A DNA stretch of 64,000 nucleotides from Pannonibacter sp. SL95 (GTDB taxonomy: Bacteria; Pseudomonadota; Alphaproteobacteria; Rhizobiales; Stappiaceae), in assembly GCF_026672425.1 (NCBI RefSeq), contig NZ_JAPPRC010000003.1, positions 507,001 through 571,000 on the forward strand. The letters are read 5' to 3'. Both the position numbers and the translations under genes were made by a program. This document shows, piece after piece, positions 23,373-52,603 of this stretch (its first letter is position 1; each line of letters opens with the position of its first letter). Below the pieces are notes generated by a model. That model did not search any database. It was given only the letters and a program-made list of their open reading frames with translations, and was not told where the DNA came from.

Positions 23373-23481
23373 GGCCGCCAGCTGACGGCCAGCCAGATGG
23401 CGGCCAGCCTGATGGTGGACTGGCAAGCTCTGGCAAACGGGCGTATCAGAGTTCGGCAGTCAACTTTTCGAACAGGTCCCA

Positions 23482-25989
23482 ATGCCAGACACGCGTGCTG
23501 CCCCGCCCCTGTCGCCGCACCTGAACCGCTGGACCGGCGAATTCACGGATCTGGCGCGTGAAGCGGGCTATGGCGCGGCCAATTTTCGCGCGACGCGGGC
23601 GACGGCGCGGATCGGGATGATCGCCTCGACGCTGGCCAGCGTGTCGTTCCTGCCGCTCGATCTGCAACTGATCGCACCGCCGGACCTCTACCTGTTCATT
23701 GGCATCCGGCTGTCACTGCTCGTGATCTGTGTCGGTGCCCTGGTTGTCATGCAGCACGCCACCACGGAACGGGGCGTGATCCTGGTTACCTATGCGCAGC
23801 AGGCCCTGTTCTATTTTCTCAATGCGGTCATCTTCGATCATCCGGCCTTGACCCGGCATGGGGGCATGCTGCTGCCGCTGATGGCACTGGCGCTGCCGGT
23901 GCTGTTGCCAGGCCGGCTGTGGCAGGCTGCCCTGATGAGCGCCTATGCGGCGTTGGTCAGTCTGCTGTTCTGGGGTGTGCTGCGGGAGGTTCCGGAGAGC
24001 CCGGCCGATCTGGGCGTCATCCTGCTGGTGACCGGCGTCGGCTTCTGTGTCGGCGTTGCGGCGCGCGCGCAGCTGAACCGGATGCGGCGTGAGGAATTCC
24101 TGCATATCGAGCGGGAACGGCAGACCAATCTGGAACTTCTGGCGGCGAAGGACGCAGCGGAGGCCGGCGCACGGGCCAAGTCCGACTTCCTTGCCGTCAT
24201 GAGCCACGAAATCCGCACGCCAATGAACGGCATCCTCGGCATGGTGCGGCTGATCCTGGATGAGCCAGTTTCGGACCGCCAGCGGGAACGCCTGTCGGTG
24301 GTGCTGCGCTCGGCCGAAGCCTTGCGCGTGACGCTGGATGATGTGCTGGACCTGTCCAAGCTCGAACAGGGGACGGCGAACTATGACCGGACCGCGCTCG
24401 ACATTGCGCATGTGATGGACGACGTCATCGACCTGATGCGGCCGCGCGCGGATGAGAAGGGTCTCGTGCTCGGCCTGCAGATCCTCGCCGGGGTGCCGTC
24501 CCATGTGCTGGGCGATCCGGCAAGGCTCCGGCAGATCCTGCTCAATCTGGTCGGCAACGCGGTGAAGTTTACCGAGACGGGGCATGTGCTGCTGCGGGTG
24601 AAGCCTGTGGAGAGCGGGTTGCGCTTCGAGGTGGAGGACAGCGGCATCGGCATCAGTTCGCGCGAACTGACGCGCCTGTTCCAGCCTTTCGTGCAAGCGG
24701 ACCCCAGCATCCAGCGCCGGTTTGGTGGTTCGGGACTGGGGCTCGTTATCTGCAAGCGCCTGATCGAGGATATGGGCGGGCGCATTGGTGTTGACAGCAA
24801 GCCCGGGCAGGGAAGCCTGTTCCATTTTGAGCTGCCGCTGCCTGCTGTCGCAGCGCCAGCGGCAGTAATGCCTGTCCCGGCGGCAAAGCCAGTGCGGCGC
24901 TTGCGGATGCTTCTGGTCGAGGACAACGAGATCAACCAGCAGGTTGCCTCGGCGATTCTCGAGCGGGCCGGTCACGACTGCGTCGTTGCGGAGACTGGGC
25001 GGGCGGCACTGGCGCTGGTGCAGGAGGAGGCATTCGACGCCATTCTGATGGACCTGCAGATGCCGGAAATGGACGGCTTCGAGGCAACGCGCCGGATCCG
25101 GGCGTTGGGAGCCAAGGGGCGCATGCCGATCATCGCGCTCACCGCCAATGCGATGCCCGAGGACGTTGCAAGGGCGCGGGCGGCCGGCATGAACGGCCAT
25201 CTGGCGAAGCCGATCCGCCCGCAGGAGCTTTCCGAAACGCTGGCGGCGATCGCTGCCGCCGGGACACCGTCAGCGAAGGGGGCATTTGCCGAAGGGCAGG
25301 ATCAGTCGAGGACGGTGGCCGAGGGGGCCGATGTCCTGCTGGTCGGCCCGGCAGACGTTGCGTTGCAGCACCGGCTGTCGCGCATCGGATTGCGGGTGTT
25401 TCCGATGCCAGACGTGAAAGCAGCTGCAACTCTTTATGCCAGCCGGGCGTTTCCTGTCGTGCTGGTGCGTGGTGCAGACGGGCTTGCCATGGCTCGTCTG
25501 CTGACGACCCCTGAGGGCAACCGGCCCTTGATTGCGATCTGGCAGGACGGCGGGGATGCGCTGGACCTGCAGCCCGGTGAACTGGCGCTGCCAGCGGCTG
25601 CAGATGATGACGAGCTGCGCTGGCGCCTGTTCGGAGGAACGGGGCCAACCGGTACGGCCACTGATATCGGCAGCCTGTTTGATGATGTGAAGGTGAAGGC
25701 GCTGCAGGGGCTGTTTTTGCGCAACCTCTTGGAACAGCGGCAGGCGCTGAAACCGGAAACTCTTGATCTGCAGCACATTTTGCAGATTGCGCATCGTGTT
25801 AAGGGAAGCGCGGCTAACATGGGATATGCCGACCTGGCCGCGCGCGCTGAAGCGGTGCTTGCGGAGCAGACCGGCCGTCAGGGACCAGCTGTCCGGGCGC
25901 TGATCGAGATCCTGGACGAGACAATCGATATGCTTGGTGCGACGCTGATGCGCGGATCGTCACCGGATGGGGCAAGGCGGGCGGAATGA
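23482..25989 (+). CDS. Membrane hybrid histidine kinase (HisKA-HATPase-REC-Hpt)
   Basis: 835 residues. Six or so transmembrane helices (about 45-195) form a membrane sensor without an obvious periplasmic domain. Then a coiled segment, HisKA with phospho-acceptor His242 (AVMSHEIRTPMNG), HATPase (NLVGNAVKFTETG, EDSGIGIS, GGSGLGLVI), a receiver with ILMDLQMPEMDG, a poorly conserved pseudo-receiver-like stretch (about 615-715), and a C-terminal Hpt domain (IAHRVKGSAANMG). It is a full phosphorelay in one protein, similar in layout to TorS/ArcB. Coupled by a 4-base overlap to its response regulator. Confidence 0.92.
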   Translation: MPDTRAAPPLSPHLNRWTGEFTDLAREAGYGAANFRATRATARIGMIASTLASVSFLPLDLQLIAPPDLYLFIGIRLSLLVICVGALVVMQHATTERGVILVTYAQQALFYFLNAVIFDHPALTRHGGMLLPLMALALPVLLPGRLWQAALMSAYAALVSLLFWGVLREVPESPADLGVILLVTGVGFCVGVAARAQLNRMRREEFLHIERERQTNLELLAAKDAAEAGARAKSDFLAVMSHEIRTPMNGILGMVRLILDEPVSDRQRERLSVVLRSAEALRVTLDDVLDLSKLEQGTANYDRTALDIAHVMDDVIDLMRPRADEKGLVLGLQILAGVPSHVLGDPARLRQILLNLVGNAVKFTETGHVLLRVKPVESGLRFEVEDSGIGISSRELTRLFQPFVQADPSIQRRFGGSGLGLVICKRLIEDMGGRIGVDSKPGQGSLFHFELPLPAVAAPAAVMPVPAAKPVRRLRMLLVEDNEINQQVASAILERAGHDCVVAETGRAALALVQEEAFDAILMDLQMPEMDGFEATRRIRALGAKGRMPIIALTANAMPEDVARARAAGMNGHLAKPIRPQELSETLAAIAAAGTPSAKGAFAEGQDQSRTVAEGADVLLVGPADVALQHRLSRIGLRVFPMPDVKAAATLYASRAFPVVLVRGADGLAMARLLTTPEGNRPLIAIWQDGGDALDLQPGELALPAAADDDELRWRLFGGTGPTGTATDIGSLFDDVKVKALQGLFLRNLLEQRQALKPETLDLQHILQIAHRVKGSAANMGYADLAARAEAVLAEQTGRQGPAVRALIEILDETIDMLGATLMRGSSPDGARRAE

Positions 25990-26684
25990 GTGCGACGGTT
26001 CTGATCGTGGAAGATGCGCCCGAAAGCCTGGCGATGATCGCCGGCTATCTGGCGGAGAACGGCTTTCGCACCCTGTGCGCTGCCTCCGGCGCGGAGCTGC
26101 GCAGCCGTCTGCAATCGGCCCAGCCCGACATCATCCTGCTCGACGTCAACCTGCCCGACGATGACGGCATCGCGCTGGCCCGGCAATTGCGGCTTGGCGA
26201 GAGGTTCGGCCTGATCTTTGTCACCGGACGGGATTCGGACGAGGATGTTCTGGCCGGACTTGAGGCCGGCGGGGACGACTATGTCACCAAGCCGATCAAC
26301 CTGCGCACGCTTCTGGCCCGCATCCGCAGCGTGTTGCGCCGCTCGCGCGAGCCGGTCATCACCTTCGATGGCTGGATCCTGGATGTGGTGCGGCGCGAGT
26401 TGTTCCGCCCGACGGGGCAGCTGGTTGAGCTGACTTCGGGCGAGTTCAACATTCTCGTGGCGCTGGCCTCACGCCAGATGCAGCCGGTGTCGCGCGATTT
26501 CCTGCTGGACGTGATCTCGAACCGGGACCCGAGGGAAATCTCCGGCCATACGGTCGACAACCTGATCGCACGGCTGCGCAAGAAGATGCTGCATGAAGGC
26601 AAAGACGCGCCGATCGTCACGATCCGTGGCGTCGGTTATGCCTTGATGCCGGAGCAGTCCCGGGGCGAGCCTGCCGCCAGCTAG
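25986..26684 (+). CDS. OmpR/TorR-family response regulator
   Basis: 232 residues. The receiver domain has VLIVEDAPE, the phospho-acceptor in ILLDVNLPDDDG, and FVTGRDSD...YVTKPINL. The winged-helix domain ends with HTVDNLIARLRKKM...IVTIRGVGYAL. It should be the target of the hybrid kinase with which it overlaps. It ends tail-to-tail with the GNAT gene on the other strand (stop codons overlap by 4 bases). Whether it controls the peptide cluster beside it is unknown. Confidence 0.92.
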   Translation: MSATVLIVEDAPESLAMIAGYLAENGFRTLCAASGAELRSRLQSAQPDIILLDVNLPDDDGIALARQLRLGERFGLIFVTGRDSDEDVLAGLEAGGDDYVTKPINLRTLLARIRSVLRRSREPVITFDGWILDVVRRELFRPTGQLVELTSGEFNILVALASRQMQPVSRDFLLDVISNRDPREISGHTVDNLIARLRKKMLHEGKDAPIVTIRGVGYALMPEQSRGEPAAS

Positions 26685-27646
26685 ATCGGCTTGCGGCTGA
26701 CGACGAGCCGGTCCGCCCACAGGGCATAGGGGCGGAAATGGCGGTCGAGCAGCGTGCAGACCTTGTGACCATTGCGTTCGGACGGCTGCAGGATGACGGT
26801 CGCGCCGCTGCCGGCATGCTGCTCGAGAGCGGCCAGAGCCGCTTCCATGGCCAAGAGCATGTGTCCCGGTCCTGTCGCGCACCAGCCGATCGGGATTGCC
26901 CAGCGGTGGAAGGCTGGCTGATGCTCGCACAGGAGCCAGCCGCAGAGGCGCCCCTCGCCATCCAGCAGCAGCTGGCTCATCACCGGATCGCAACGCTCCA
27001 GCCAGGGGGCAGGGGTCGCCCAGGCCGGCAGGCTGCCGGCGCGGGTAAAGAAGGTGGCCGCTGACGCGATCCGTCCAGGGGCGTCAGCTCCCGCCTCAGC
27101 AAGGGCGAAGCTGCGCAAGCCGCGCCGGCGGGCGGCAGCAATCAGCGGCTGGAAGGCACGCAGCGCGTCTTCCCGTTCGCCGATGTTGAAACTCATGCGC
27201 AGGCGAGATTGTTCGGGTTGCTGCCAGCCTTCGCTCGACAGCAGCGCGCGCAGGCTGTCCAGCTGCGGCAGCCGGTCGGACCAGCTTGTCGAGATATCCC
27301 GGCGGCCGAGCGGTTGCATCCGCTTGGAAAGGGCCTGCAGCAGGGCCCGGGCCAGACCCTGACGCCGGAACAGCGGCGTCACCATCAGGGACAGGACCTC
27401 CTGGGTCCAGGGCCGCTCCGGGTCCTGACGGGAGAGCAGCAACCCGGCCGGCACGTCGTCGATCCAGGCAACAAGATTGCAGGACGTGTCGGAAGAGGCG
27501 GCTGAAGTGGCGCTGCCTGCGAGATAGGGGCGCAGGTTGTGTGTCGTCAGCCAGGAAAGTGCGTCAAGGTCATCGGCTGTCGCAAGCCGGATGTCGAGAC
27601 TGGAGAACAGCGTCGAAGCGCCTGAGGAGGCCGGAGTTGGACGCAT
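26681..27646 (-). CDS. GNAT-family acyltransferase 2, probable RiPP maturase
   Basis: 321 residues. The N-terminal half has a GNAT fold with the acyl-CoA pyrophosphate loop RRQGLARALL; the C-terminal half looks like a second, degenerate GNAT repeat. It shares layout and several segments with the gene upstream (DISTSWSDRLPQ versus GVFARWSSQLPR), so the pair arose by duplication. GNAT enzymes beside NHLP-type precursors are the fatty-acyl-transferring maturases of selidamides, acylating Lys or Orn side chains; the role here is inferred from that context. The ATG at 27646 follows a TTG at 27649 that abuts the upstream stop codon, so translation is coupled. Confidence 0.75.
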   Translation of the reverse strand: MRPTPASSGASTLFSSLDIRLATADDLDALSWLTTHNLRPYLAGSATSAASSDTSCNLVAWIDDVPAGLLLSRQDPERPWTQEVLSLMVTPLFRRQGLARALLQALSKRMQPLGRRDISTSWSDRLPQLDSLRALLSSEGWQQPEQSRLRMSFNIGEREDALRAFQPLIAAARRRGLRSFALAEAGADAPGRIASAATFFTRAGSLPAWATPAPWLERCDPVMSQLLLDGEGRLCGWLLCEHQPAFHRWAIPIGWCATGPGHMLLAMEAALAALEQHAGSGATVILQPSERNGHKVCTLLDRHFRPYALWADRLVVSRKPI

Positions 27647-27649
27647 CAA

Positions 27650-28621
27650 TCAGATCTCGCATTGCTCGGGACTGGCAAACACGAACTCGCTTTCAAACAG
27701 GAAATCGGTGGCCACGGTGTGGTCCCCGAACTGCTTGTAAAGCATACGCTCCATTCCGCCGGGAATGCCAGCTGGCGGTTGGGCGATCAAAATGGCATCC
27801 GGTCCGGCCTTTGCCTCCAGCCGACGGCACAGCGAGGCAATGCCGCCGACGAGCCAGCCGAGCGGGACCTTTTCGGCAACAACCCAGCCTTGGGGGATGT
27901 ACCAGCGGCCGAACTGTGGCTGCAGCACGCAGACCATCCAGCCAGCGACCGCACCGTTCCGATCACTGAGGACCACAGTCGCGTCCTGATCCGCCACCTG
28001 AAGCCAGCCACTGGTGTCGGACCATTCCGGCGCACGGCCTGCGGCAATCAGGGCCGTGTTCTGGGCCGTGAAGTCGGCAATGCCGTCTGCGCCGAGTTCG
28101 GCCAGCGACCGAACGACCAGGCCCCTGGCTTCGAGGCGGGCCAGGATCCGGTCGCGGTCGGGGAAAGCCTGCGGCCAGTCGCCAATGCGCCAGGACATGC
28201 GCCGGCGCGTTACCTGCGGCTGGCTCCAGCCGGCCGATGCAAGCAGGCGGGCAAATTCGCTGGCGCGCGGCAACTGGCTGGACCAGCGCGCGAAAACGCC
28301 CTTCCTCCCGATCTGGCGCAGCTGCTTCATCAGCTCGGACAGGAGCATCGTGGCAATGCCGCGACCGCGCCAGGCCTTGGCCACCATCACGGAGGTCAGT
28401 TCCTGCAGATCATCGCCGCCCTTGCAGGACAGCAGCAGGCCGACGGGTTCGTCGCCAGCGAACGCAGCCAGGCGGCAGATCCCGACCTCGGGCCTGTCAT
28501 CCTCCAGCATCCAGTGCAAGGAGCCAGCCGTGAGGGCCGACAGACGCGACGCATCTGCGCTTGTAACCGTGCGGATCTGCGGCAGGGGCGTGTCGATGGT
28601 CTGTGCGATCAGGTCATTCAT
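27650..28621 (-). CDS. GNAT-family acyltransferase 1, probable RiPP maturase
   Basis: 323 residues from ATG 28621. The N-terminal GNAT domain has TSVMVAKAWRGRGIATMLL with the RGRGIA acyl-CoA loop; the C-terminal half (WLQVADQDATVVLSDRNG, WMVCVLQPQFGRWYIPQGWV) aligns in position with the second half of its paralogue. It is divergent from the seven-precursor array across a 327-base spacer. By analogy with selidamide clusters it would attach a fatty acyl chain to a core residue, probably Lys. The frame is open to 28735, but the extra residues do not look coding. No strong ribosome site is visible for either start. Confidence 0.75.
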   Translation of the reverse strand: MNDLIAQTIDTPLPQIRTVTSADASRLSALTAGSLHWMLEDDRPEVGICRLAAFAGDEPVGLLLSCKGGDDLQELTSVMVAKAWRGRGIATMLLSELMKQLRQIGRKGVFARWSSQLPRASEFARLLASAGWSQPQVTRRRMSWRIGDWPQAFPDRDRILARLEARGLVVRSLAELGADGIADFTAQNTALIAAGRAPEWSDTSGWLQVADQDATVVLSDRNGAVAGWMVCVLQPQFGRWYIPQGWVVAEKVPLGWLVGGIASLCRRLEAKAGPDAILIAQPPAGIPGGMERMLYKQFGDHTVATDFLFESEFVFASPEQCEI

Positions 28622-28948
28622 GGGGCTGGCGCCAGTGTCACTCTGTGCGTGTGCGAGGCCGACAGTGCCAAACCTCTTGTCCTGATTATTCCTATCGCAG
28701 GCGCGCAGGTTTGTTTTGGAACTTTTCAGGTCCATTCAGCGGTGCTGAGAAACTTCGATCTATACAGATCTCATCGAAGATCGATTGGTGTGATTGTTTC
28801 AAGTCATGCTGATGATTTGAATAAACGACTTTCGATGCTTCATAGATGGCAGATTTTCTGAAGTTAATTTCAGTCAATCTGTGTCTGTCCTGATGTGGCA
28901 GGTGATGCCTGATCCGCCTCGGGGTTTGACGCAAACCGGAGAGATCCC
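28622..28948. promoter_or_regulatory. Divergent promoter region between GNAT genes and RiPP precursor array
   Basis: This 327-base spacer is markedly AT-richer than its surroundings. It contains the inverted repeats TCGATCT (28755-28761)/AGATCGA (28778-28784) and CTGAA-GTTAAT-TTCAG (28858-28873). These are candidate operators; no regulator can be assigned. GGAGAG lies upstream of the first precursor start. Confidence 0.45.
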
Positions 28949-29296
28949 ATGGCTGGTTCCACTGATCCGATGACCCTCGCCCGTCAGCATGTCGAGCGTG
29001 CTCTTGTGGCTCGCGCTTCGGAAGACGCCGAGTTCCGTGCCCTGCTCGTTCGCGAGCCGCGCGCAGCGCTCAAGCAGCTGCTTGGCGTTGACCCGATCCC
29101 GGGGTTCCGCATTCGCGTGATCGAGGAAGTTCCAGGCGAAGTGACGCTGGTGCTTCCGCGTGACATTGCCGCCGACGAGCTGCCGGACGAACTGCTCGAC
29201 CTGGCCTCTGGCGGCACGACGTTCCAGGACCTTGGCTGCAAGGATCCGCGTGCCGGTTGGGCTAAGCCGATCACGAAGATCGTGCGCACGGATTGA
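28949..29296 (+). CDS. NHLP-type RiPP precursor peptide 1
   Basis: 115 residues: an 89-residue nitrile-hydratase-like leader ending LASGG and a 26-residue core. Leader landmarks shared by all seven copies are PRAALKQLLG, DPIP, EVTLVLPR and DELPDELLD. The core has one Cys (core position 8, LGCKDP) and three Lys, and is the least like the others. Cleavage after Gly-Gly by the C39 peptidase of the exporter at 47.6 kb is expected. First gene of the array. Confidence 0.9.
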   Translation: MAGSTDPMTLARQHVERALVARASEDAEFRALLVREPRAALKQLLGVDPIPGFRIRVIEEVPGEVTLVLPRDIAADELPDELLDLASGGTTFQDLGCKDPRAGWAKPITKIVRTD

Positions 29297-29348
29297 GGCG
29301 TCTGGACCTATCCCGGTCGAGTGTTTTTTAGAAGGAAGGAGATTGCAA

Positions 29349-29693
29349 ATGACTGAGTTTGTTGAAGGCATCAACAAGGCGCGCGCGCATATCGAGGCTT
29401 CGTTGATTGCGAAGGCTATGGAAGACAGCGCGTTTCGCTCGCTTCTGAAGTCCGATCCGCATGCTGCGCTGAAGCAGCTCTTGGGCAACGACCCCATCCC
29501 GTCGCTCAAGATCCGCGTGGTCGAGGAGACGGCTGGTGAAGTGACCCTGGTGCTGCCGCGGTCGATCGCCGAGGACGAGCTGCCGGACGAACTGCTGGAT
29601 CTGGCCTCAGGTGGCATCAGCTTCAGCTCGTTCCTGCCAGTTGGCGGCTTCCATGGTGAGACCAGCTGGAAGAACCTCTGCCCGAAGAAGTAA
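29349..29693 (+). CDS. NHLP-type RiPP precursor peptide 2
   Basis: 114 residues: an 89-residue leader ending LASGG and a 25-residue core rich in Ser, Phe and Gly with a single Cys near the end (NLCPKK) and three Lys. A second Gly-Gly lies inside the core (PVGGFHG), so an alternative cleavage site is conceivable. The start at 29349 follows GAAGGAAGGAG; the longer open frame upstream is not coding. Confidence 0.9.
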   Translation: MTEFVEGINKARAHIEASLIAKAMEDSAFRSLLKSDPHAALKQLLGNDPIPSLKIRVVEETAGEVTLVLPRSIAEDELPDELLDLASGGISFSSFLPVGGFHGETSWKNLCPKK

Positions 29694-29708
29694 GGCGTCA
29701 TCCAGACC

Positions 29709-29734
29709 GGAGCCCGGGCTGAATGCCTGGGTTC
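29709..29734 (+). other. Hairpin between precursor genes 2 and 3
   Basis: GGAGCCCGGGC and GCCTGGGTTCC pair over 11 positions (with G-U pairs) around TGAAT, 15 bases after the precursor 2 stop. There is no proper T tract. It may be an RNA-stabilising or attenuating hairpin. Confidence 0.4.
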
Positions 29735-29814
29735 CGGTTGGTTCTCAGCGGCTTTGATCCGCGCGTGACAGCGACTTACCGCAATATTTCCAAGCCGGAT
29801 ATTAGAGAAGAACG

Positions 29815-30147
29815 ATGAACGATTTCAGCAAGAACATGGCGATTGCCCGCAACAACATTCAGCGGACCCTGATCGACAAGGCATCGGAAGATGCAGCCTT
29901 CCGCAAGCTGCTCAAGGAAAACCCGCATGCAGCGCTGCGCGAGTTGCTTGGCAACGATCCGATCCCGTCGCTGACGATCCGCGTCATCGAGGAACAGCCG
30001 GGTGAAGTGACGCTGGTGCTGCCGCGCAATGTTGCCGAAGACGAGCTGCCGGACGAGCTGCTGGATCTGGCTTCGGGCGGAACGCTGTTCATGGCGTTTC
30101 TCGAGTGGCCGATGAGCAACAAGGCAAAGGGTTGCCCGAAAACCTGA
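29815..30147 (+). CDS. NHLP-type RiPP precursor peptide 3
   Basis: 110 residues: an 89-residue leader ending LASGG and a 21-residue core beginning TLFMAFLEW and ending KGCPKT. The single Cys is at core position 18 and the C-P-K tail resembles precursor 2. Leader landmarks PHAALRELLG, DPIP, EVTLVLPR and DELPDELLD are intact. The 121-base gap before it is the longest in the array. Confidence 0.9.
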   Translation: MNDFSKNMAIARNNIQRTLIDKASEDAAFRKLLKENPHAALRELLGNDPIPSLTIRVIEEQPGEVTLVLPRNVAEDELPDELLDLASGGTLFMAFLEWPMSNKAKGCPKT

Positions 30148-30156
30148 TGCGAAAGG

Positions 30157-30191
30157 GCGGGGCTGATGGCTCCGCTCCGTTTTCCCTTTTG
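30157..30191 (+). terminator. Weak terminator/attenuator between precursor genes 3 and 4
   Basis: GCGGGGC (30157-30163) pairs with GCTCCGC (30169-30175) around TGATG, and is followed by TCCGTTTTCCCTTTTG. The broken T run suggests partial termination, which would lower expression of precursors 4-7 relative to 1-3. Confidence 0.4.
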
Positions 30192-30206
30192 CTCAGGAGT
30201 TGCCAG

Positions 30207-30542
30207 ATGACCGAGAACAATCAGGGTTGGGCGCTTGCCCGGGCCCACATGGAAGCAGCGCTTGTCGCGAAGACAAGCGAAGACCCCGCCCTCCGCGCAT
30301 TGTTGAAGAGCGACCCGCACGCTGCCTTGCAACAGCTTCTGGGCGTGGACCCCATTCCCGCGATGAAGATTTCGGTCATCGAGGAAGGTGCCGGGGAGGT
30401 CGTTCTCGTTCTGCCGCGCCAGATCGCCCAGGATGAACTGCCGGACGAACTGCTCGACTACGCAGCTGGCGGCAACAACCGCGAGTGCTGGGAAAAATTC
30501 AGCAATGACTGGTTCTTCGGCCGCCTGACGAAGAAATACTGA
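30207..30542 (+). CDS. NHLP-type RiPP precursor peptide 4
   Basis: 111 residues: an 89-residue leader ending YAAGG and a 22-residue aromatic core NNRECWEKF...RLTKKY. It belongs with precursors 5 and 6, which share N-x-R/K-E/D-C-W-x-K/R-F/L at the core start with Cys at position 5. The start at 30207 has AGGAG ten bases upstream. Confidence 0.9.
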   Translation: MTENNQGWALARAHMEAALVAKTSEDPALRALLKSDPHAALQQLLGVDPIPAMKISVIEEGAGEVVLVLPRQIAQDELPDELLDYAAGGNNRECWEKFSNDWFFGRLTKKY

Positions 30543-30585
30543 GTGCACCACGGTCGCCCCGAGCGCCAACTGATGGAAAGATGCG

Positions 30586-30915
30586 ATGTCTGATTTCGTG
30601 AACGGCCTGAGCCAGGCAAGAGCCCATATCGAAGCAGCCGTGGTCAAGCGGGCCACTGAGGATCCGCAGTTCCGTGCCCTTCTGCTCGCCAACCCGCATG
30701 CCGCGCTCAAGGATCTGCTCGGGAATGATCCGATCCCGTCCTTGACGATCCGAGTTGTCGAGGAGGCCGCGGGTGAAGCTGTGCTCGTGCTGCCGCGCCA
30801 GATTGCGGAAGATGAGCTCCCGGATGAACTGCTTGATTTTGCAGCCGGCGGCAATGCCAAGGACTGCTGGTGGAAGTTCAACCAGTGGGCCTACAAGCAG
30901 GACTGGATGCCGTAA
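30586..30915 (+). CDS. NHLP-type RiPP precursor peptide 5
   Basis: 109 residues: an 89-residue leader ending FAAGG and a 20-residue core starting NAKDCWWKFNQW, with four Trp and three Lys. It is closest to precursors 4 and 6. Its leader differs from precursor 6 mainly by conservative changes, consistent with recent tandem duplication. GGAAAG precedes the ATG. Confidence 0.9.
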   Translation: MSDFVNGLSQARAHIEAAVVKRATEDPQFRALLLANPHAALKDLLGNDPIPSLTIRVVEEAAGEAVLVLPRQIAEDELPDELLDFAAGGNAKDCWWKFNQWAYKQDWMP

Positions 30916-30999
30916 GGCGACGGCCACTGAGTGCTGTCACCAGGTCTCAATTCGCGTCAGCCGTTTGAAGCTGGCGCGTCTTTTGGGAGGGATGTTGCA

Positions 31000-31329
31000 A
31001 TGACCGACTTGATCCAGACGATCGGAAAGGCCCGTGACCACATTCAGACTGCGGTCCTGCAGCGGGCTGCGGCAGATGCGGGCTTCCGCGCCTTGCTTCT
31101 CACCAACCCGCATGCTGCGCTCAGGGATCTGTTCGGGAATGACCCTGTCCCGTCCTTGACGATCCGCGTTGTCGAAGAGGCGGCTGGCGAGGCTGTGCTC
31201 GTACTGCCGCGCCAGATCTCTCAGGATGAGCTGCCCGACGAGCTGCTGGATCTTGCAGCCGGCGGAAATGCGCGCGAGTGCTGGGACCGTCTGAACTACT
31301 GGCTCTACAAGAACAAGCCGTTTGGATAG
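31000..31329 (+). CDS. NHLP-type RiPP precursor peptide 6
   Basis: 109 residues: an 89-residue leader ending LAAGG and a 20-residue core starting NARECWDRLNYW, ending KNKPFG. It has the Cys5-Trp6 start of precursors 4 and 5, with Arg instead of Lys at core position 8 and Lys at 15 and 17. The start at 31000 follows GGGAGG. The leader carries LFGNDPVP instead of LLGNDPIP, a change shared only with precursor 7. Confidence 0.9.
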   Translation: MTDLIQTIGKARDHIQTAVLQRAAADAGFRALLLTNPHAALRDLFGNDPVPSLTIRVVEEAAGEAVLVLPRQISQDELPDELLDLAAGGNARECWDRLNYWLYKNKPFG

Positions 31330-31425
31330 GGCCCGCAGGACAGGGGGCATTGCCGGGTCACCGCGATTGAGCCCTGGCGGTTTCCCTGATTTCATTTTGA
31401 CGTTTTCCTGTTCAAGGACATTGCC

Positions 31426-31758
31426 ATGACTGACTTTATTCAGACGATGAACACGGCCCGCGCCCACATCCAGACCGCGCTGCTGGAACGGGCTGCGGCA
31501 GATGCGGCCTTTCGTGATCTGCTGAAAAACAATCCGCATGCCGCCCTGCGCGAGCTGTTCGGATCAGACCCGGTTCCGTCGGTGAGAATCACCGTCGTCG
31601 AGGAAGCTGCCGGCGAGGTGACCCTGGTGCTGCCGCGCCAGATCGCCGAAGACGAGCTGCCGGATGATCTGCTGGACTATGCTGCTGGCGGGGCATTCAA
31701 GGGCTGCAAGGGCGACGGCTGGACCATCCAGAAGGTAGAGCTGCCGGGCGTTCGCTGA
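31426..31758 (+). CDS. NHLP-type RiPP precursor peptide 7
   Basis: 110 residues: an 89-residue leader ending YAAGG (here DELPDDLLD) and a 21-residue core AFKGCKGDGW...LPGVR. The single Cys is again at core position 5 but the rest of the core is unlike 4-6, so leader and core evolve separately. AAGGAC precedes the start. Last precursor of the array; a terminator follows at 32112. Confidence 0.9.
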   Translation: MTDFIQTMNTARAHIQTALLERAAADAAFRDLLKNNPHAALRELFGSDPVPSVRITVVEEAAGEVTLVLPRQIAEDELPDDLLDYAAGGAFKGCKGDGWTIQKVELPGVR

Positions 31759-44124: not shown

Positions 44125-44642
44125 GCGTGTCCTTCGTTCCGGCAGCGCTGGCCGCTGGAGCGGCAAAGCACGCGTCCCGTAACGGTAATGAAGCCGCGGG
44201 GAAGGCCGGTGATCTGTCGTGTGAACCTGTTTCAGGCTTCGATCAAGCCATGACCATTCTTATCACGGCCTTGCGCCCCATAAAGATGTGAACCTTCAAT
44301 GGCTGTTGATGTGGGCTGTGCAGACTGTGTCTTCATGCCTGAGAATTTCGTAAAATTCTAATAAATGAAACATCGAGGTTCAGGACTGCTTGCCGCTGGA
44401 GTTGTTGGTTGTGCTCAAGGTTGCAGCATTTGTCTTTTGCAACACGGATTTTTATCTTTATCACTGCTTTCTGCTCAGATTTTTGGTGCGTGTTGCGGGA
44501 CGGGTGCCGGCTTGCTGGGCTATAGGCAGGTATTCACCGCTCTGGCGAAAATGGGGTGTATCCGGGTGTGGCTGATCTTCGGATGGTAGTGAGTAACGAG
44601 GGGCGGCAGGTGTGCCGAGTAGCGCGGGCGACAGTTCTGTTC
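44125..44642. promoter_or_regulatory. Divergent intergenic region between the che operon and the export operon
   Basis: A 518-base spacer. The part from 44280 to 44480 is AT-richer and contains the perfect palindrome AGAATTT-CGTA-AAATTCT (44342-44359), a candidate operator. A small open frame at 44365-44589 has no ribosome site or recognisable features and is not called. Confidence 0.45.
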
Positions 44643-46214
44643 ATGGATCGAGTGTCAAATGCCCTGCCAGGCAGAGGCAGGCGCTGCCTCACTGTTGTGC
44701 TGTTGGCCGGCGTCCTGTCGGGTTGCGCTGCCATGGGCGAGGCGCTGACGCCGCAGGATGGGGCGGACGTCGCCATGCCCGGTCAGTTTGCCTATGCTGC
44801 TGAAGCTGCCGGGTCATCGGGTTTGCGCAAGGCGCAGGGCGCACATGACACAGCCGAGCAGTTCTGGGCCGGTTTCCGGTCAGACGACCTCAGCAGTCTG
44901 ATCCGCCGCGCGGAGCTGGGTAGCCGGGACATCACCGTGGCGATTGCGCGCCTGCGACAGGCTGAGGCGGGGGCGGACGAAGCCTTCGGCGGGTTGCTGC
45001 CGAGCGGCGGTCTTGGCGGCACCCAGACCACATTCAAGGCATCGGCAAACACGGCGGGCTTGCCAGCCGGCGTCAACATGCCGGTGCGCCAGCAGCGCAA
45101 GGTCGGTCTCAACGCCAGCTGGGAGCTGGACTTCTGGGGCAAGGCCAGCTCGAACTTCGAGGCCGCCAGCAACCGCGCCGACGCGGCGGCCTTTGCCGTT
45201 GCCGCGACCCGGCTGGCGGTGACCTCTGAAACGGCCTTGTCCTATGTCCAGATCCTGTCTCTGCGCGACCGGCTGGCGCTGGGGCGCGAGAACCTGACCC
45301 TGGCGCGCAAGGTGCAGGACAACGTCAAGGCACGGGTCGAGGCGGGATCCGCCACGCAGATCATGCTGGCGCAGCAGGAAACGGTTGTCTTGCAGCAGGA
45401 GGCCACGGTGTTGCGCCTGCAGCGGACCCTGGCGCAGGAAGAGGTGACGCTTGGCCTGTTGATCGGGGCAACGCCCGGCGAGGTCAGGATCACGCGCGGC
45501 AGCCTCGGCAAGCTCGCGATCCCGAAGCTCGGGGTGGGAGCGCCGGCTGATCTTCTGCGGCGCCGGCCTGACGTGCGGCAGGCAGAAGAGCTGGTCGCGG
45601 CTTCGGCGAACAATGTCGCCAGCGCCCGGGCGGCGATGCTGCCGAGCCTGACGCTGTCGTTGCAGAAGGGCTTCGAAAGCCTGACCACGGGGGCCCTGTT
45701 CTCCGGCGCGGCCGGTGTCTTTTCGGTGGCCGGACAACTGACGCAGCCGATCTTCGACGCGCCGCGCCTTCTGGCACAGCTTGAGGGGACGCAGGCGCGG
45801 CGGCAGGAGCTGATCGCCACCTATCAGCAGGCGGTGATGACCTCGCTGTCCGATGTTGAGAAGGCGCTGATTGCCTATGGCGGACTGGCCCGGGAGGAGA
45901 AGGTCGCCGGACGGGCCACCGCAGCTGCGCGCCGCGCGTATGAACTGACGCTTGAACAGCTGGATGCAGGGCAAGTGGACATGACCACCGTGCTCAACAC
46001 CCAGCGCGACTATTTCACCGCTGTCGACAGCCTGCAGCAGGTGCGTCTGGCGCGGTTCCAGTCCGCGATCGCACTCTATCGTGCGCTCGGTGGCGGCTGG
46101 ACCGACGAGGACGTCGCCAGACTGATTGCCGAACGTGAGGCCATCGACGCGGCGGCCGCGCCCGCCAGCAAGACGGTGGCCATTGCCCCTGGATCTGCCG
46201 GGGCGGTGAATTGA
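44643..46214 (+). CDS. TolC/OprM-type outer-membrane efflux lipoprotein
   Basis: 523 residues. The N-terminal signal has a lipobox (LLAGVLSGC, about residues 19-27), as in OprM/NodT-type factors. Two outer-membrane efflux repeats follow, with DLLRRRPDVRQAEELVAASANN and the long alpha-hairpin repeats. It would form the outer-membrane tunnel for the HlyD adaptor and ABC exporter encoded next. The start codon is uncertain; upstream in-frame starts at 44583 or 44610 remain possible, but the lipoprotein signal begins properly from 44643. First gene of the export operon. Confidence 0.88.
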   Translation: MDRVSNALPGRGRRCLTVVLLAGVLSGCAAMGEALTPQDGADVAMPGQFAYAAEAAGSSGLRKAQGAHDTAEQFWAGFRSDDLSSLIRRAELGSRDITVAIARLRQAEAGADEAFGGLLPSGGLGGTQTTFKASANTAGLPAGVNMPVRQQRKVGLNASWELDFWGKASSNFEAASNRADAAAFAVAATRLAVTSETALSYVQILSLRDRLALGRENLTLARKVQDNVKARVEAGSATQIMLAQQETVVLQQEATVLRLQRTLAQEEVTLGLLIGATPGEVRITRGSLGKLAIPKLGVGAPADLLRRRPDVRQAEELVAASANNVASARAAMLPSLTLSLQKGFESLTTGALFSGAAGVFSVAGQLTQPIFDAPRLLAQLEGTQARRQELIATYQQAVMTSLSDVEKALIAYGGLAREEKVAGRATAAARRAYELTLEQLDAGQVDMTTVLNTQRDYFTAVDSLQQVRLARFQSAIALYRALGGGWTDEDVARLIAEREAIDAAAAPASKTVAIAPGSAGAVN

Positions 46215-46232: not shown

Positions 46233-47555
46233 ATGTCGACTGACGCCAACGCCTCCAGCTCCTCCGCACCCGCATCGCAGCCGCCGGTCGAAAACCAGGC
46301 GGCCCGCCTGTTCCGCAAGTCCGCGCTCGACCGGTTGTCCTCGCCCGAGCAGCTGGACCAGTTGATCCGGCTCACCCGGCCGCGCGACTGGGTGGCAACG
46401 CTCGTCGTTCTGCTCTTGATCGGGCTCGCGGTGGCGTGGTCCTTCCTCGGCCGGGTGCCGGAGCGGGTGAAGGGGTCAGGCATCCTGATCACGTCTGGCG
46501 GCCGTGTTGTCGATGCCGTGGCAACGGGTGAGGGAACGCTGGCGGAAATCCTGGTGCCGGTCGGCGGGCGTGTGACGCAGGGCGAGGTAGTTGCCCGTGT
46601 GATCCAGCCCGGCTTGCGCCAGCAGCTGGAGAACATCCGGGCGGTGGTTGCCGAGCGCAGCGGCCAGCTGGAAACCCTTCGGGGCCAGATCGACGAAGGC
46701 AGCCGGGCGACGAAAGACACGCTGGAAGCCCGCGCGAAGATGCTCGACCTGCGGGTCAAGGACGCGCAGGAGCGGGTGTCGGTCCTGGAAAAGCAGGCAG
46801 CGCAGGATGCCTCGCTGTTTGATCGCCGTCTCATCACCTGGCAGCAGCTCAACGAGACGCGTCAGGCCCTGGCGCAGGCGCGCCAGACCGAGCTCGAGGC
46901 ACGCAGCCAGATCTCGCAGCTGGAAAGCGAGGACATCACCCAGCGCAATGCCAATCTGCGCGATATCCGCAGCGCCGAGGAGCGGCTGGCTGACGCGCGC
47001 CGCCAGATGGCTGAAGTCGAGATCCAGCTGCGCCAGCAGGAGACCATCGTGAGCCCTGCCTCCGGCCGGGTGACGGAATGGAAGGCCATTCCAGGCACGC
47101 GCATCGCGCCGGGACAGCCGCTGATCAGCATCGAGAGCGGGGCGACCGGGCTGGAGCTTCTGCTGTATCTGCCACCCAACGACGGCAAGCGGGTCAAGCC
47201 CGGCATGAGTGTGCAGATTGCCCCCTCCACCGTGCGCCGCGAGGAATACGGGATGATGGAAGGTCAGGTCAGCGACGTGTCGGACTTCCCGTCAACGGCG
47301 CAGGCGATGCAGGCGGTGCTGCGCAATGATCAGCTGGTCCAGAGCTTCTCGGAAAAGGGGGCGCCTTATGCCGCGCGCATTGCCCTGACGCGGGATCCGG
47401 CAACGCCGAGCGGCTTTGCCTGGTCGGGCGGGTCCGGGCCGTCGCAGCAGTTCACCAGCGGGTCGCTGGCCGCTGCCGAGGTGACCGTGGCCTGGCGCCG
47501 GCCGATCAGCTACGTCATTCCCTGGCTGCGCAAGCTGACGGGTCTGGCCGGGTGA
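46233..47555 (+). CDS. NHLP-system HlyD-type secretion adaptor
   Basis: 440 residues. A cytoplasmic N-terminus, one transmembrane helix (about 53-72), a lipoyl/barrel-sandwich half (VVDAVATGEGTLAEILVPVGGRVTQGEVVARV), a long coiled-coil hairpin (about 125-275), and the second lipoyl half (VSPASGRVTEWKAIPGTRIAPGQPL). It matches NHLP leader-peptide secretion proteins that bridge the ABC exporter and outer-membrane factor. It lies 18 bases after the outer-membrane gene and 7 bases before the peptidase ABC gene. Confidence 0.88.
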   Translation: MSTDANASSSSAPASQPPVENQAARLFRKSALDRLSSPEQLDQLIRLTRPRDWVATLVVLLLIGLAVAWSFLGRVPERVKGSGILITSGGRVVDAVATGEGTLAEILVPVGGRVTQGEVVARVIQPGLRQQLENIRAVVAERSGQLETLRGQIDEGSRATKDTLEARAKMLDLRVKDAQERVSVLEKQAAQDASLFDRRLITWQQLNETRQALAQARQTELEARSQISQLESEDITQRNANLRDIRSAEERLADARRQMAEVEIQLRQQETIVSPASGRVTEWKAIPGTRIAPGQPLISIESGATGLELLLYLPPNDGKRVKPGMSVQIAPSTVRREEYGMMEGQVSDVSDFPSTAQAMQAVLRNDQLVQSFSEKGAPYAARIALTRDPATPSGFAWSGGSGPSQQFTSGSLAAAEVTVAWRRPISYVIPWLRKLTGLAG

Positions 47556-47562
47556 GCGCGTC

Positions 47563-49749
47563 ATGAGCGAGCAGAAAACCCCGATCAAGCCGCAGCATCG
47601 CCGGCGCAAGCAGACCCCGTCCATCCTGCAGATGGAAGCGGTGGAATGCGGCGCGGCGAGCCTTGCGATGATCCTGGCGCATTATGGCGCGTGGATCCCG
47701 CTGGAGGAACTGCGCATTGCCTGCGGCGTCTCGCGCGACGGCTCCAAGGCCAGCAACGTGCTGAAGGCCGCCCGCCGTTACGGGATGACCGCCAAGGGCT
47801 ATCGCAAGGAACCGGAAGGGCTGGTTGACCTGCCCTGGCCGGCGATCCTGCACTGGAACTTCAACCACTATGTGGTGTTCGAGGGCATGAACGCGACACA
47901 TGCCTTCATCAATGACCCGGCGACCGGCCCGCGCATGATCACGCGCGAGGAGCTGTCGGAAGCCTTCACCGGTGTGGTGCTGACCTTCGAGCGGACGCCG
48001 GAATTCCGCCGCACGGCCAAGCCTGCCGGTCTTCTTGCTGCCTTCCGCAGCCGGGTGGCCAATTCCAAGAAGGGGCTGGGGCTGATTGCCCTGCTCAGCC
48101 TTGCCATGGTGATCCCGGGCGTTGTCCTGCCGGTCTATGCCAAGCTGTTCGTCGACGGCGTCTTGATGATGCAGCAGGAGCACTGGGTAAAACCGCTGTT
48201 CATCGCGCTGGCTGCAACGGCGGTGATCCGGGCTGCGCTGACTCATCTGCGGGCCTCGCTGATCCTGAGGCTGCAGACCAAGCTGACCATCACCGGGGCG
48301 AGCGCCTTCATCTGGCGGGTGCTGCACCTGCCGATGGCATTTTTCTCGCAGCGAAGTCCCGGCGAAATTGCCGAGCGCATCGAGGCGAGCGGCCGGGTGG
48401 CCGAGGTGATCTCGTCGGACATGGCCAATGCCATCCTGAACTGGGGCACGCTGGTGTTCTTTGCCCTGGTGCTGATCGGCTACGATCCGGCGCTCGGCCT
48501 CATGACCGTTGCCCTCGGACTGCCGAACCTGTTCGTGCTGCGCCTTGTGCAGAAGCGGCTGCGGCAGGATTCGATCCGGCTGTCGGTGGAGCAGGGCAAG
48601 CTCGGCGGGGCGACTGTCGGGATCATCTACAACATCGAGACCATCAAGGCGTCGGGGCTGGAAACCAGCTCGTTCGGGCGCTGGGCCGGCATCCATGCGC
48701 GCATGCTCAACACATCGCAGGCGCTGGGGGCCAAGTCGATGATCACCTCGCTTGCGCCCACGCTGCTGAGTGGCCTGATCGACGCGGCCATCCTTGGCGT
48801 CGGCGCGATGCGGGTGATGCAGGGCGGCCTGACGATCGGCGATCTGGTGGCGTTCCAGCTGCTGGCGGCGAGCTTTACCGCGCCGCTGGTCAGCCTGGTC
48901 GAGCTGTCGCCGAAACTCGCCAGCATCCGCGCCGATCTCAACCGGGTGGATGATGCCATGCGCAACCCGCCGGATCCGCTGACCGAACCGCCGGCGGACG
49001 GAGGGGCCGGCGGGCCGGTTCTGCTCGGCGGGCAGCTGGAGGTCAACGCGATCCGCTATGGCTACAATCCGCTGGACGAACCGCTGTTTGACGGGATTTC
49101 CCTGTTTGCTGCACCGGGCGAGAGGATCGCGCTGGTGGGGCGTTCGGGCTGCGGCAAGTCTTCGCTCGGCCGCATCATCTGCGGCCTTGTCGCGCCGTGG
49201 TCCGGCGATGTGCGCATCGACGGCATTCCCCTCAACGATCTGGACCAGTACCGGCGTGCGGCGAACATTGCCTATGTTGACCAGGAGATTTTCCTGTTCG
49301 AGGGAACGGTGCGGGAGAACCTCACGCTCTGGAATCCGGATGTGCCGGACAATGTCATCACGCGGGCGCTGGAAGATGCGGCGATCCTTGATGACATCGT
49401 GGCACGGCCCGGGGAGCTGGATGCGCATGTCGAGGAAGGCGGGCGCAATTTCTCTGGCGGTCAGCGGCAGCGGCTGGAAATTGCGAGAGCACTGGTTGGC
49501 GACCCGGCGGTGCTGATCCTCGACGAGGCGACGGCGGCGCTGGATCCGCAGACGGAAAAGCTGATCGACGACAATCTGCGCCGGCGTGGCTGCACCACCA
49601 TCATCATCGCGCACAGGCTCAGCACCGTGCGCGACTGCAGCGAGATCATCGTCATGGACACGGGGCGCATCGTCGAGCGCGGGACCCATGACAGCCTGAT
49701 GGCGGCAGACGGCGACTATGCCGAGCTGATCCGCTCGGGCGGACATTGA
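47563..49749 (+). CDS. NHLP-system peptidase-containing ABC exporter
   Basis: 728 residues. An N-terminal C39 peptidase domain has Gln23 and catalytic Cys29 (LQMEAVECGAASLAM), His102 (WNFNHYVVF) and Asp118 (INDPATG). Six transmembrane helices follow (about 165-430), then an ATPase with GRSGCGKSSLG, signature NFSGGQRQRLEIARAL and VLILDEATAALD. It should cut the precursor peptides after their Gly-Gly and export the cores. It fits NHLM exporters encoded with NHLP precursors. Lies 12 bases before the second NHLP ABC gene. Confidence 0.92.
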   Translation: MSEQKTPIKPQHRRRKQTPSILQMEAVECGAASLAMILAHYGAWIPLEELRIACGVSRDGSKASNVLKAARRYGMTAKGYRKEPEGLVDLPWPAILHWNFNHYVVFEGMNATHAFINDPATGPRMITREELSEAFTGVVLTFERTPEFRRTAKPAGLLAAFRSRVANSKKGLGLIALLSLAMVIPGVVLPVYAKLFVDGVLMMQQEHWVKPLFIALAATAVIRAALTHLRASLILRLQTKLTITGASAFIWRVLHLPMAFFSQRSPGEIAERIEASGRVAEVISSDMANAILNWGTLVFFALVLIGYDPALGLMTVALGLPNLFVLRLVQKRLRQDSIRLSVEQGKLGGATVGIIYNIETIKASGLETSSFGRWAGIHARMLNTSQALGAKSMITSLAPTLLSGLIDAAILGVGAMRVMQGGLTIGDLVAFQLLAASFTAPLVSLVELSPKLASIRADLNRVDDAMRNPPDPLTEPPADGGAGGPVLLGGQLEVNAIRYGYNPLDEPLFDGISLFAAPGERIALVGRSGCGKSSLGRIICGLVAPWSGDVRIDGIPLNDLDQYRRAANIAYVDQEIFLFEGTVRENLTLWNPDVPDNVITRALEDAAILDDIVARPGELDAHVEEGGRNFSGGQRQRLEIARALVGDPAVLILDEATAALDPQTEKLIDDNLRRRGCTTIIIAHRLSTVRDCSEIIVMDTGRIVERGTHDSLMAADGDYAELIRSGGH

Positions 49750-52078: not shown

Positions 52079-52603
52079 ATGCGCAAGGTGCTTTACATCC
52101 TTGGTCAGCTCGACGATGCGGACATCGCCTGGATGGGGCAGGCCGGCCGGCGGGTGAGCCTCAAGCCGGGCCAGGTGCTGATCGAGGAAGGGCGCGCGAC
52201 GGCGCATCTGTTCATCGTGCTGGACGGGCAGGTGGATGTGCGCGTCAGCGGCGTCGGCGTGGTGGCGAGCCTGTCGAGCGGCGAGATCCTGGGTGAAATG
52301 TCCTTCGTCGACAAAGCGCCGCCCTCGGCAACGGTCGAGGCGGCGCGCGAAACCCGCGTGCTGGCGCTGGAGAAGGCGCTGATCGAGAAGCGCCTCGCCG
52401 AGACACCGGCCTTTGCGGCGCGGTTCTACAAGGCTCTGGCTATATTCCTCGCCGACCGCTTGCGCACGACGACGCTGCGCGGCAAGGGCGGCAGCGCGCC
52501 GGCCGAGGACGAACTGGACGACATGGTGCTGGACGGAGTGTCCATGGCGGGCCTGCGATTCCAGCAGCTCCTGGAAATGCTGGACCGGCCGGAGGCTGTG
52601 TAG
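52079..52603 (+). CDS. Cyclic-nucleotide-binding-like domain protein
   Basis: 174 residues with a single Crp-like beta-barrel (about 10-120) and no DNA-binding domain. The phosphate-binding cassette reads GEMSFVDKAPPSATVEA; the Arg that usually contacts the cyclic phosphate is Pro here, so cyclic-nucleotide binding is uncertain. It lies 22 bases after the NHLP ABC genes. Such domains are known beside or fused to NHLP exporters. With a nucleotide cyclase in the neighbouring operon, it is a possible receiver for that signal. Confidence 0.8.
   Translation: MRKVLYILGQLDDADIAWMGQAGRRVSLKPGQVLIEEGRATAHLFIVLDGQVDVRVSGVGVVASLSSGEILGEMSFVDKAPPSATVEAARETRVLALEKALIEKRLAETPAFAARFYKALAIFLADRLRTTTLRGKGGSAPAEDELDDMVLDGVSMAGLRFQQLLEMLDRPEAV

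What the first reader, a model, noticed from the sequence alone, without database searches (positions are those of the whole stretch)
26681..28948. Tandem GNAT paralogues beside NHLP precursors: probable lipidated RiPPs (selidamide-like)
GNAT acyltransferases next to NHLP-type precursors are the defining pair of selidamides, where fatty acids are attached to Lys or Orn side chains. Here two diverged GNATs serve seven precursors, and I see no peptide arginase, radical-SAM enzyme or cyclodehydratase nearby. Two enzymes could split the work by core class or attach different acyl chains. Each GNAT also appears to have two GNAT-like halves.
Basis: partly seen in the sequence, partly recalled or inferred. 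Interest (0 to 1): 0.85.

Follow-up and report, generated by a model that had tools for sequence, protein, structure and literature searches.

The report
Twin acyltransferases beside seven peptide precursors
A Pannonibacter bacterium carries two sister acyl-transferring enzymes next to seven small export-ready peptides that probably receive an acyl or fatty-acid tag; nearly all such peptides in the genus have exactly one unexplained cysteine, and the enzyme pair looks as if it was swapped as a unit between close relatives.

Summary
A Pannonibacter genome encodes two adjacent, diverged tandem-fold GNATs (26681-27646, 27650-28621, minus strand), divergent from seven NHLP-leader precursors (28949-31758). 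An NHLP export cassette (NodT, HlyD, peptidase ABC1, ABC2) lies in the same window at 44.6-52.1 kb. No LanC-like protein and no pfam12640 peptide arginase was found in the genome; the GNATs are the only maturases recognised. The selidamide-like reading (acyl-CoA to a core side chain, most likely Lys; leader cut at GG; export) fits context and fold, but no chemistry is shown and NpuN/PhaN could not be aligned.

New: (1) 40 of 41 short cores examined in five Pannonibacter genomes have exactly one Cys; three of the 40 have no Lys. (2) Against P. carbonis, the GNAT pair plus its divergent intergenic region stands out (dS about 1.3; flanks and leader-matched precursors 0.1-0.43), suggesting exchange as one unit. 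(3) The core motif xxFS[AS]F recurs in Rhizobiaceae, also behind Nif11-type leaders. (4) GNAT-A lost its P-loop Gly in two species but keeps a low dN/dS. GNAT clusters with NHLP or Nif11 leaders and no lanthionine synthetase are already in print, so: a variant of a known kind.

The parts
26681..27646 (-). GNAT-A, tandem-fold GNAT acyltransferase (321 aa), P-loop RRQGLA in the N-domain
   Evidence: PF00583 8.5e-09; AF2 plus Foldseek; P-loop
27650..28621 (-). GNAT-B, tandem-fold GNAT acyltransferase (323 aa from the likely start; ORF opens at 28735), P-loop RGRGIA; three bases lie between its stop and the ATG of GNAT-A
   Evidence: PF00583 2.3e-09; AF2 plus Foldseek; congener starts
28622..28948 (.). 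divergent intergenic region between the GNATs and precursor 1, inside the block that differs from P. carbonis
   Evidence: sliding identity
28949..29296 (+). NHLP precursor 1, core TTFQDLGCKDPRAGWAKPITKIVRTD
   Evidence: TIGR03793 1.9e-14, over cut-off
29349..29693 (+). NHLP precursor 2, core ISFSSFLPVGGFHGETSWKNLCPKK
   Evidence: TIGR03793 2.9e-14, over cut-off
29815..30147 (+). NHLP precursor 3, core TLFMAFLEWPMSNKAKGCPKT
   Evidence: TIGR03793 3.6e-15, over cut-off
30207..30542 (+). NHLP precursor 4, core NNRECWEKFSNDWFFGRLTKKY
   Evidence: TIGR03793 1.5e-11, 44.0 bits, below curated cut-off
30586..30915 (+). NHLP precursor 5, core NAKDCWWKFNQWAYKQDWMP
   Evidence: TIGR03793 1.7e-13, 50.2 bits, below cut-off
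31000..31329 (+). NHLP precursor 6, core NARECWDRLNYWLYKNKPFG
   Evidence: TIGR03793 5.8e-13, 48.5 bits, below cut-off
31426..31758 (+). NHLP precursor 7, core AFKGCKGDGWTIQKVELPGVR
   Evidence: TIGR03793 9.5e-13, 47.8 bits, below cut-off
23482..25989 (+). hybrid histidine kinase of the conserved block (possible regulator)
   Evidence: PF00512, PF02518, PF00072, PF01627; at E<=1e-150 in 5 of 5 Pannonibacter and 0 of 36 other relatives
25986..26684 (+). response regulator with DNA-binding domain, convergent with GNAT-A
   Evidence: PF00072, PF00486
43108..44094 (-). uncharacterised protein beside the exporter; a 52% identical homologue lies between exporter and precursors in P. phragmitetus (L034)
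   Evidence: no Pfam match; BLASTP
44583..46214 (+). NodT-type outer membrane efflux protein
   Evidence: TIGR01845 292 bits, over cut-off
46233..47555 (+). NHLM HlyD secretion protein
   Evidence: TIGR03794 317 bits, over cut-off
47563..49749 (+). NHLM ABC1: peptidase/permease/ATPase, presumed leader cutter and exporter
   Evidence: TIGR03796 955 bits, over cut-off
49762..52056 (+). NHLM ABC2 permease/ATPase
   Evidence: TIGR03797 709.9 bits, cut-off 709.4
52079..52603 (+). cyclic-nucleotide-binding bacteriocin-transport-associated protein
   Evidence: TIGR03896 132 bits, below cut-off 161; PF00027

Best explanation
This is a RiPP locus of the genus Pannonibacter whose only recognised tailoring enzymes are two tandem-GNAT acyltransferases. 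In the cytosol GNAT-B, alone or with its paralogue GNAT-A, binds acyl-CoA through the P-loop of its N-domain and transfers the acyl group to a side chain of the short core while the long NHLP leader holds the precursor; Lys is the most likely acceptor. The NHLM ABC1 transporter, through its peptidase domain, then cuts after Gly-Gly and, with HlyD, ABC2 and NodT, exports a single-Cys acylated peptide whose thiol may form a disulfide outside the cell. Shown here: gene content, families, tandem fold, P-loops, conservation, the single-Cys rule, the block of divergence against P. carbonis. Inferred: acyl transfer, chain length, acceptor, role of the Cys, division of labour, and service by the exporter 13 kb away.
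For: GNAT and NHLP families. GNAT pair plus precursors in 5 of 5 Pannonibacter genomes, and no full-length homologue in the 32 other genomes of the family searched (3 of them show short P-loop matches only). Export cassette in the window, directly beside the GNAT/NHLP block in P. phragmitetus (L034), with the same layout by eye in P. indicus (L036). Tandem fold and N-domain P-loop as published for NpuN, which acylates Lys1 of NpuA. Lys 11.1% of core residues against 2.7% in the window's predicted proteins, present in 37 of 40 cores. No LanC-like or pfam12640 match.
Against: No chemistry is shown. 3 of 40 cores have no Lys. One short precursor at the P. phragmitetus locus (L034:7356-7697) has neither Lys nor Cys in its core and no GG. 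The constant residue is Cys, not Lys. GNAT-A lacks the P-loop Gly in 2 of 5 species. NpuN also accepts acetyl-CoA in vitro, so fold and context do not fix the chain length. The pfam12640 search had no ringing control, and radical SAM and YcaO maturases were not searched genome-wide.
Confidence: 0.55

Rival explanations
1. The near-invariant Cys is the acceptor of one or both GNATs: S-acylation, alone or with Lys N-acylation of the same peptide, giving a thioester or doubly lipidated RiPP.
For: Exactly one Cys in 40 of 41 short cores although its position varies from residue 5 to 25 (the 41st read by eye); leaders nearly lack Cys (3 of 4197 residues); 3 cores have Cys but no Lys; both GNATs kept in 5 of 5 species.
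Against: GNAT lipidation of RiPPs described in the passages seen is on nitrogen. NHLP cores of Shinella, G632 and G667, next to homologous GNATs, have Lys and no Cys.
Confidence: 0.15
2. The pair is a heterodimer in which GNAT-B is catalytic and GNAT-A is mainly a scaffold or specificity subunit.
For: GNAT-A P-loop Gly replaced by His in both P. phragmitetus and P. indicus while dN/dS of A between them is 0.23; A has the higher dN/dS in 4 of 4 pairs compared; A and B are diverged together against P. carbonis; adjacent genes.
Against: The P-loop of A is canonical in 3 of 5 species including this one. The same Gly is also missing (RRRRLG) in a single GNAT beside a Nif11-type precursor in G632 whose close relative in G667 has it, so its loss need not mean loss of activity. 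No complex was modelled.
Confidence: 0.25
3. The two GNATs split the precursors by core class or carry different acyl chains.
For: Single NHLP-linked GNATs in Shinella, G632 and G667 each stand by one xxFS[AS]F core; in Pannonibacter the duplication goes with additional core classes.
Against: P. phragmitetus and P. indicus keep core classes I-IV although GNAT-A there has lost the P-loop Gly.
Confidence: 0.3
4. The modification is a short acyl (acetyl) cap or a self-protection step and not lipidation.
For: NpuN accepts acetyl-CoA in vitro; the nearest folds include acetyltransferases.
Against: No other recognised maturase whose product would need protection; homologues keep standing beside leader peptides in several families.
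Confidence: 0.2

Closest known systems
Selidamides / nostolysamide GNAT NpuN (PMC13060382: passages and sections 9 and 11 read)
   Same: Tandem GNAT fold, clear P-loop only in the N-domain, leader of the NHLP or Nif11 kind, GG cleavage by a peptidase-containing ABC transporter; [quoted passage not shown]
   Different: Here no LanC-like match in the genome, two GNAT paralogues, seven precursors, single-Cys cores (NpuA core has four Cys), acceptor unknown; sequence relation to NpuN not tested
Phaeornamide pathway (PhaN with PhaR, PhaI, PhaM; PMC9505594 passages read)
   Same: NHLP precursor, GNAT, alphaproteobacterial host, dedicated export
   Different: No LanC-like match and no peptide arginase match (the latter without a ringing control); hydroxylase not searched; no ornithine route recognised
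Lipolanthines (microvionin, goadvionins; named in PMC13060382 passages)
   Same: GNAT lipidation of a RiPP
   Different: N-terminal acylation of class III lanthipeptides; no lanthionine machinery recognised here

Membership tests
Selidamide | GNAT maturase in the cluster | tested here: met
   family and fold; that it is a maturase is inferred
Selidamide | Fatty acyl on a Lys or Orn side chain of the product | not testable with these tools
   no chemistry available
Selidamide | Acceptor available in every core (Lys, or Arg plus peptide arginase) | tested here: inconclusive
   37 of 40 cores have Lys; 3 have Arg but no Lys and no pfam12640 match was found in 7 genomes, but no control rang
Selidamide | GNAT groups by sequence with PhaN, KptN, NpuN | not tested
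   those sequences were not obtained; paper lookup failed, the one genome-contig scan returned three Pannonibacter loci
NHLP-leader RiPP (proteusin-type precursor) | TIGR03793 leader ending in GG | tested here: met
   7 of 7 precursors at E<=1.5e-11; 3 of 7 over the curated cut-off
NHLP-leader RiPP | NHLM export system | tested here: met
   ABC1, ABC2 and HlyD over cut-off at 46.2-52.1 kb of the window
Class II lanthipeptide | LanM/LanC-like synthetase | tested here: not met
   PF05147 in 0 of 7 genomes, control rang in 1 of 14; 9 of 40 cores have no Ser/Thr
Tandem GNAT | two GNAT folds in one chain | tested here: met
   AF2 plus Foldseek over the whole chain, TM about 0.5-0.6

The most novel reading that the evidence does not exclude
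A GNAT-only lipopeptide system that works on a near-invariant cysteine: one GNAT S-acylates the single Cys or both GNATs doubly acylate (Lys and Cys), giving a family of single-Cys acylated exported peptides whose acyl chemistry is re-tuned between species by swapping the enzyme pair as a cassette while the peptides stay nearly the same.
Probability: 0.15. Interest if true: 0.8.

Novelty: new variant of a known kind. Interest (0 to 1): 0.55.

Why it matters
It would be a minimal RiPP lipidation system (leader, GNAT pair, exporter) without lanthionine or arginase chemistry, useful as a peptide-lipidation tool. It offers natural experiments: similar precursors served by two diverged enzyme alleles (this species and P. 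carbonis), a P-loop change in one paralogue, and a core motif kept across leader families, which together make acceptor choice, chain-length control and paralogue division of labour directly testable.

Tried and rejected
Lanthionine explanation for the Cys: rejected, no LanC-like match in seven genomes and 9 of 40 cores lack Ser/Thr. Ornithine route: no pfam12640 match in seven genomes, not proof because no control rang; three PF00491 matches lie elsewhere in the genome. PDB by sequence with GNAT-B: one hit, E 0.73, taken as chance. Core motif in the literature: terms SFSAF, GFSAF, FSAFILYG, ISFSSF gave 46 papers; the 10 listed look unrelated by title. A search of Pannonibacter with RiPP terms found 1,413 papers with two terms; none of the 15 listed holds the word Pannonibacter. 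Attempt to obtain NpuN/PhaN: the PNAS selidamide paper (DOI recalled) is not held; plasmid tblastn with three GNATs found only Shinella, Ensifer and Azospirillum records. The VIA-align library was not available.

Rows dropped before counts: of 59 TIGR03793 matches in five Pannonibacter genomes, 47 were parsed: 40 short cores (31 aa or less), each with one Cys, and 7 long cores (40-56 aa) with none. Five more were dropped by my parser and read by eye (L034:7356, L136:6061 and 6485, L139:6332, L143:6836): none has Cys, and one of them (L034:7356) has a short core, hence 40 of 41. Seven weak matches (36.5 bits or less) were not examined as cores, except the G002:C2 one, a different precursor type with one Cys. 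Gene calls come from a home-made caller, which in places took antisense ORFs (for example over the ABC genes at 47.5-51.9 kb), so the residue frequencies of 'the window's predicted proteins' are approximate. The strict P-loop pattern also matched one stretch in the C-half of GNAT-A (QHAGSG at 276), not at the P-loop position of the alignment.
Full report
What is there. The window is C3:507001-571000 of a 5.04 Mb genome of the genus Pannonibacter (Stappiaceae): three of its four congeners in the search set are P. carbonis (G003), P. indicus (G004) and P. phragmitetus (G002), by contigs of the same length and place; the species of the window is not known to me. Two minus-strand genes, GNAT-B (27650-28621) and GNAT-A (26681-27646), lie head to tail, three bases apart, divergent from seven plus-strand NHLP precursors (28949-31758). 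Convergent with GNAT-A lie a response regulator and a hybrid histidine kinase. A chemotaxis block (32-43 kb) separates the precursors from an NHLP export cassette: NodT, NHLM HlyD, NHLM ABC1, NHLM ABC2 and a cyclic-nucleotide-binding protein (44.6-52.6 kb). The only match of the genome over the NHLM ABC1 cut-off is this one.

The enzymes. Both match GNAT models only in the N-terminal half. AlphaFold2 models built from eight sequences have pLDDT 84.3 and 81.5, and Foldseek aligns them over their whole length with solved tandem GNATs such as 2wpw and 7q3a, at TM-scores of about 0.5-0.6. The CoA P-loop is canonical in the N-domain (RRQGLA in A, RGRGIA in B) and degenerate at the corresponding C-domain place, which is what the nostolysamide paper reports for NpuN, an enzyme that acylates Lys1 of its peptide. 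In P. phragmitetus and P. indicus the P-loop Gly of GNAT-A is His, yet its dN/dS between the two is 0.23. GNAT-A has the higher dN/dS in 4 of 4 pairs compared. Loss of this Gly is not unique: one single GNAT of G632 has RRRRLG.

Distribution and ancestry. Full-length A and B occur together in 5 of 5 Pannonibacter genomes and in none of the 32 other genomes of the family searched (three of those show short P-loop matches only). Wider profile searches matched 64 of 385 class genomes, 54 of 297 order genomes and 32 of 398 phylum genomes, but most matches cover the P-loop region only; those over about two thirds of the profile or more outside the genus are G439, G266, G414, G632, G667, G669, G808 and G861. 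Because only five to seven candidates per genome were scored there, these are lower bounds. Plasmid searches added Shinella sp. H4-D48, Ensifer sp. PDNC004 and Azospirillum oryzae. I saw a leader-type small ORF near the GNAT in these except G669. In a tree of 30 GNATs, A and B are each one clade, together one clade (99/98), and join the NHLP-linked GNATs of Shinella, G632 and G667 (98/99); the other GNATs fall outside (midpoint root). So the duplication is older than the Pannonibacter species split and, if the root lies outside these 13, younger than the split from those relatives.

The peptides. Of 59 TIGR03793 matches in five Pannonibacter genomes I parsed 47. All 40 short cores (20-31 aa, 36 distinct) have exactly one Cys, at residue 5, 6, 8, once 15, or near the C terminus; one further short precursor that the parser dropped has none, so 40 of 41. 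Cys is 0.7% of the window's predicted proteins, and the leaders hold 3 Cys in 4197 residues. The 7 long-core precursors have none. Lys is enriched (11.1%; 37 of 40), but three cores have Cys and Arg and no Lys. Nine have no Ser or Thr, so the Cys cannot be a lanthionine partner in them, and no LanC-like match was found. Cores fall into recurring classes; for instance NAKDCWWKFNQWAYKQDWMP is identical in two species whose leaders are 69% identical. A class beginning xxFSxF recurs at one conserved place away from the GNATs in all five genomes (one precursor each, two in P. indicus), beside the homologous GNATs of Shinella, G632 and G667, and in Ensifer behind leaders that are annotated as, or look like, Nif11. 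The Shinella, G632 and G667 versions have Lys but no Cys, so the single-Cys rule holds in Pannonibacter and not in all relatives.

Exchange of the enzyme pair. Against P. carbonis, synonymous divergence is 0.16 for the kinase, 0.13 for the regulator, 0.18 and 0.17 for the CobW-type gene and its neighbour, 0.10-0.12 for two chemotaxis genes, 0.19 for NodT and 0.11-0.43 for six leader-matched precursors, but 1.31 (bootstrap 1.05-1.77) for GNAT-A and 1.26 (1.01-1.72) for GNAT-B. Precursor 6 has no counterpart there, and precursor 2 paired by core rather than leader gives 1.06, so precursors are also reshuffled. Sliding identity falls from about 95% to 60-79% (200-base steps, 83% at the left edge) between about 26.65 and 28.95 kb and returns at the start of precursor 1. 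Third-position GC of the GNAT genes is like that of their neighbours, so the donor is likely a relative. Against G001, the GNATs of this window are no more diverged than the flanks (0.76 and 0.92 against 0.83-0.96), while those of P. carbonis are slightly more (1.16 and 1.12 against 0.91-0.93, with overlapping bootstrap ranges), a weak hint that P. carbonis holds the incoming copy. The simplest account is one recombination that replaced both GNATs and the divergent intergenic region in one lineage while most precursors stayed. That both differ together supports a functional unit; what the exchange does, for instance a different acyl chain, is inference.

How it most likely works. Leader-bound precursors are acylated by the GNATs in the cytosol, cut at GG by ABC1 and exported. 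Steps shown are genes, families and folds; acylation, acceptor and chain length are inferred. Lys is favoured by the NpuN precedent and by Lys enrichment; Cys is the main rival because it is the constant residue. The paper also reports NHLP or Nif11 clusters of NpuN relatives without lanthionine synthetase, so a GNAT/NHLP cluster without LanM is not new in itself. In the listings and passages of the searches named I did not see a description of single-Cys cores, of a paired GNAT, or of its exchange; the library is open-access only, I saw passages and two sections, not whole papers, and supplements were not readable.

Limits. NpuN, PhaN and KptN were not compared by sequence. The pfam12640 search had no ringing control; that pfam12640 is the peptide-arginase family comes from passages of PMC10028609. 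Radical SAM and YcaO enzymes were not searched genome-wide, so a remote maturase remains possible. Whether the exporter 13 kb away serves these precursors is inferred from its family and from the P. phragmitetus and P. indicus loci, where it adjoins the GNAT/NHLP block.

Noticed in passing
26681-28948 against L035 (P. carbonis): The GNAT pair and its divergent intergenic region are strongly diverged (dS about 1.3) between loci otherwise about 95% identical, suggesting allelic exchange of the enzymes.
   Followed up: yes
L031:8601-10726 (own genome C5), also L143, L145, L136, L139: A second NHLP precursor family with long Cys-less cores; in three genomes (L031, L143, L145) it lies beside large genes that look like B12-type ribonucleotide reductases and a 339-454 aa protein, whose 376-aa copy here has no Pfam or NCBIfam match.
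   Followed up: partly
L037, L039, L146, L082, L084, L128, L130: Other tandem GNATs beside small GG-leader ORFs, several of whose cores share a Lys motif such as MKDFGKGSKISFG / RMKDSVKGARFS / QKEVKKGSGFGR; cleaner candidates for Lys acylation.
   Followed up: partly
L083:4324-5526: Ensifer precursors (one annotated Nif11, two similar) include two with xxFS[AS]F cores otherwise seen behind NHLP leaders, which suggests leader exchange around a conserved core.
   Followed up: partly
21934-26684: CobW-type GTPase, a 108-aa protein, hybrid histidine kinase and response regulator form a block with the GNATs in all five Pannonibacter loci (by eye for four); regulation of or by the peptides is untested.
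   Followed up: partly
L078, L079: GNAT-like genes near Nif11-type precursors with poly-His GGKGHHHH cores and a large gene that looks like a RiPP radical SAM enzyme by eye.
   Followed up: no
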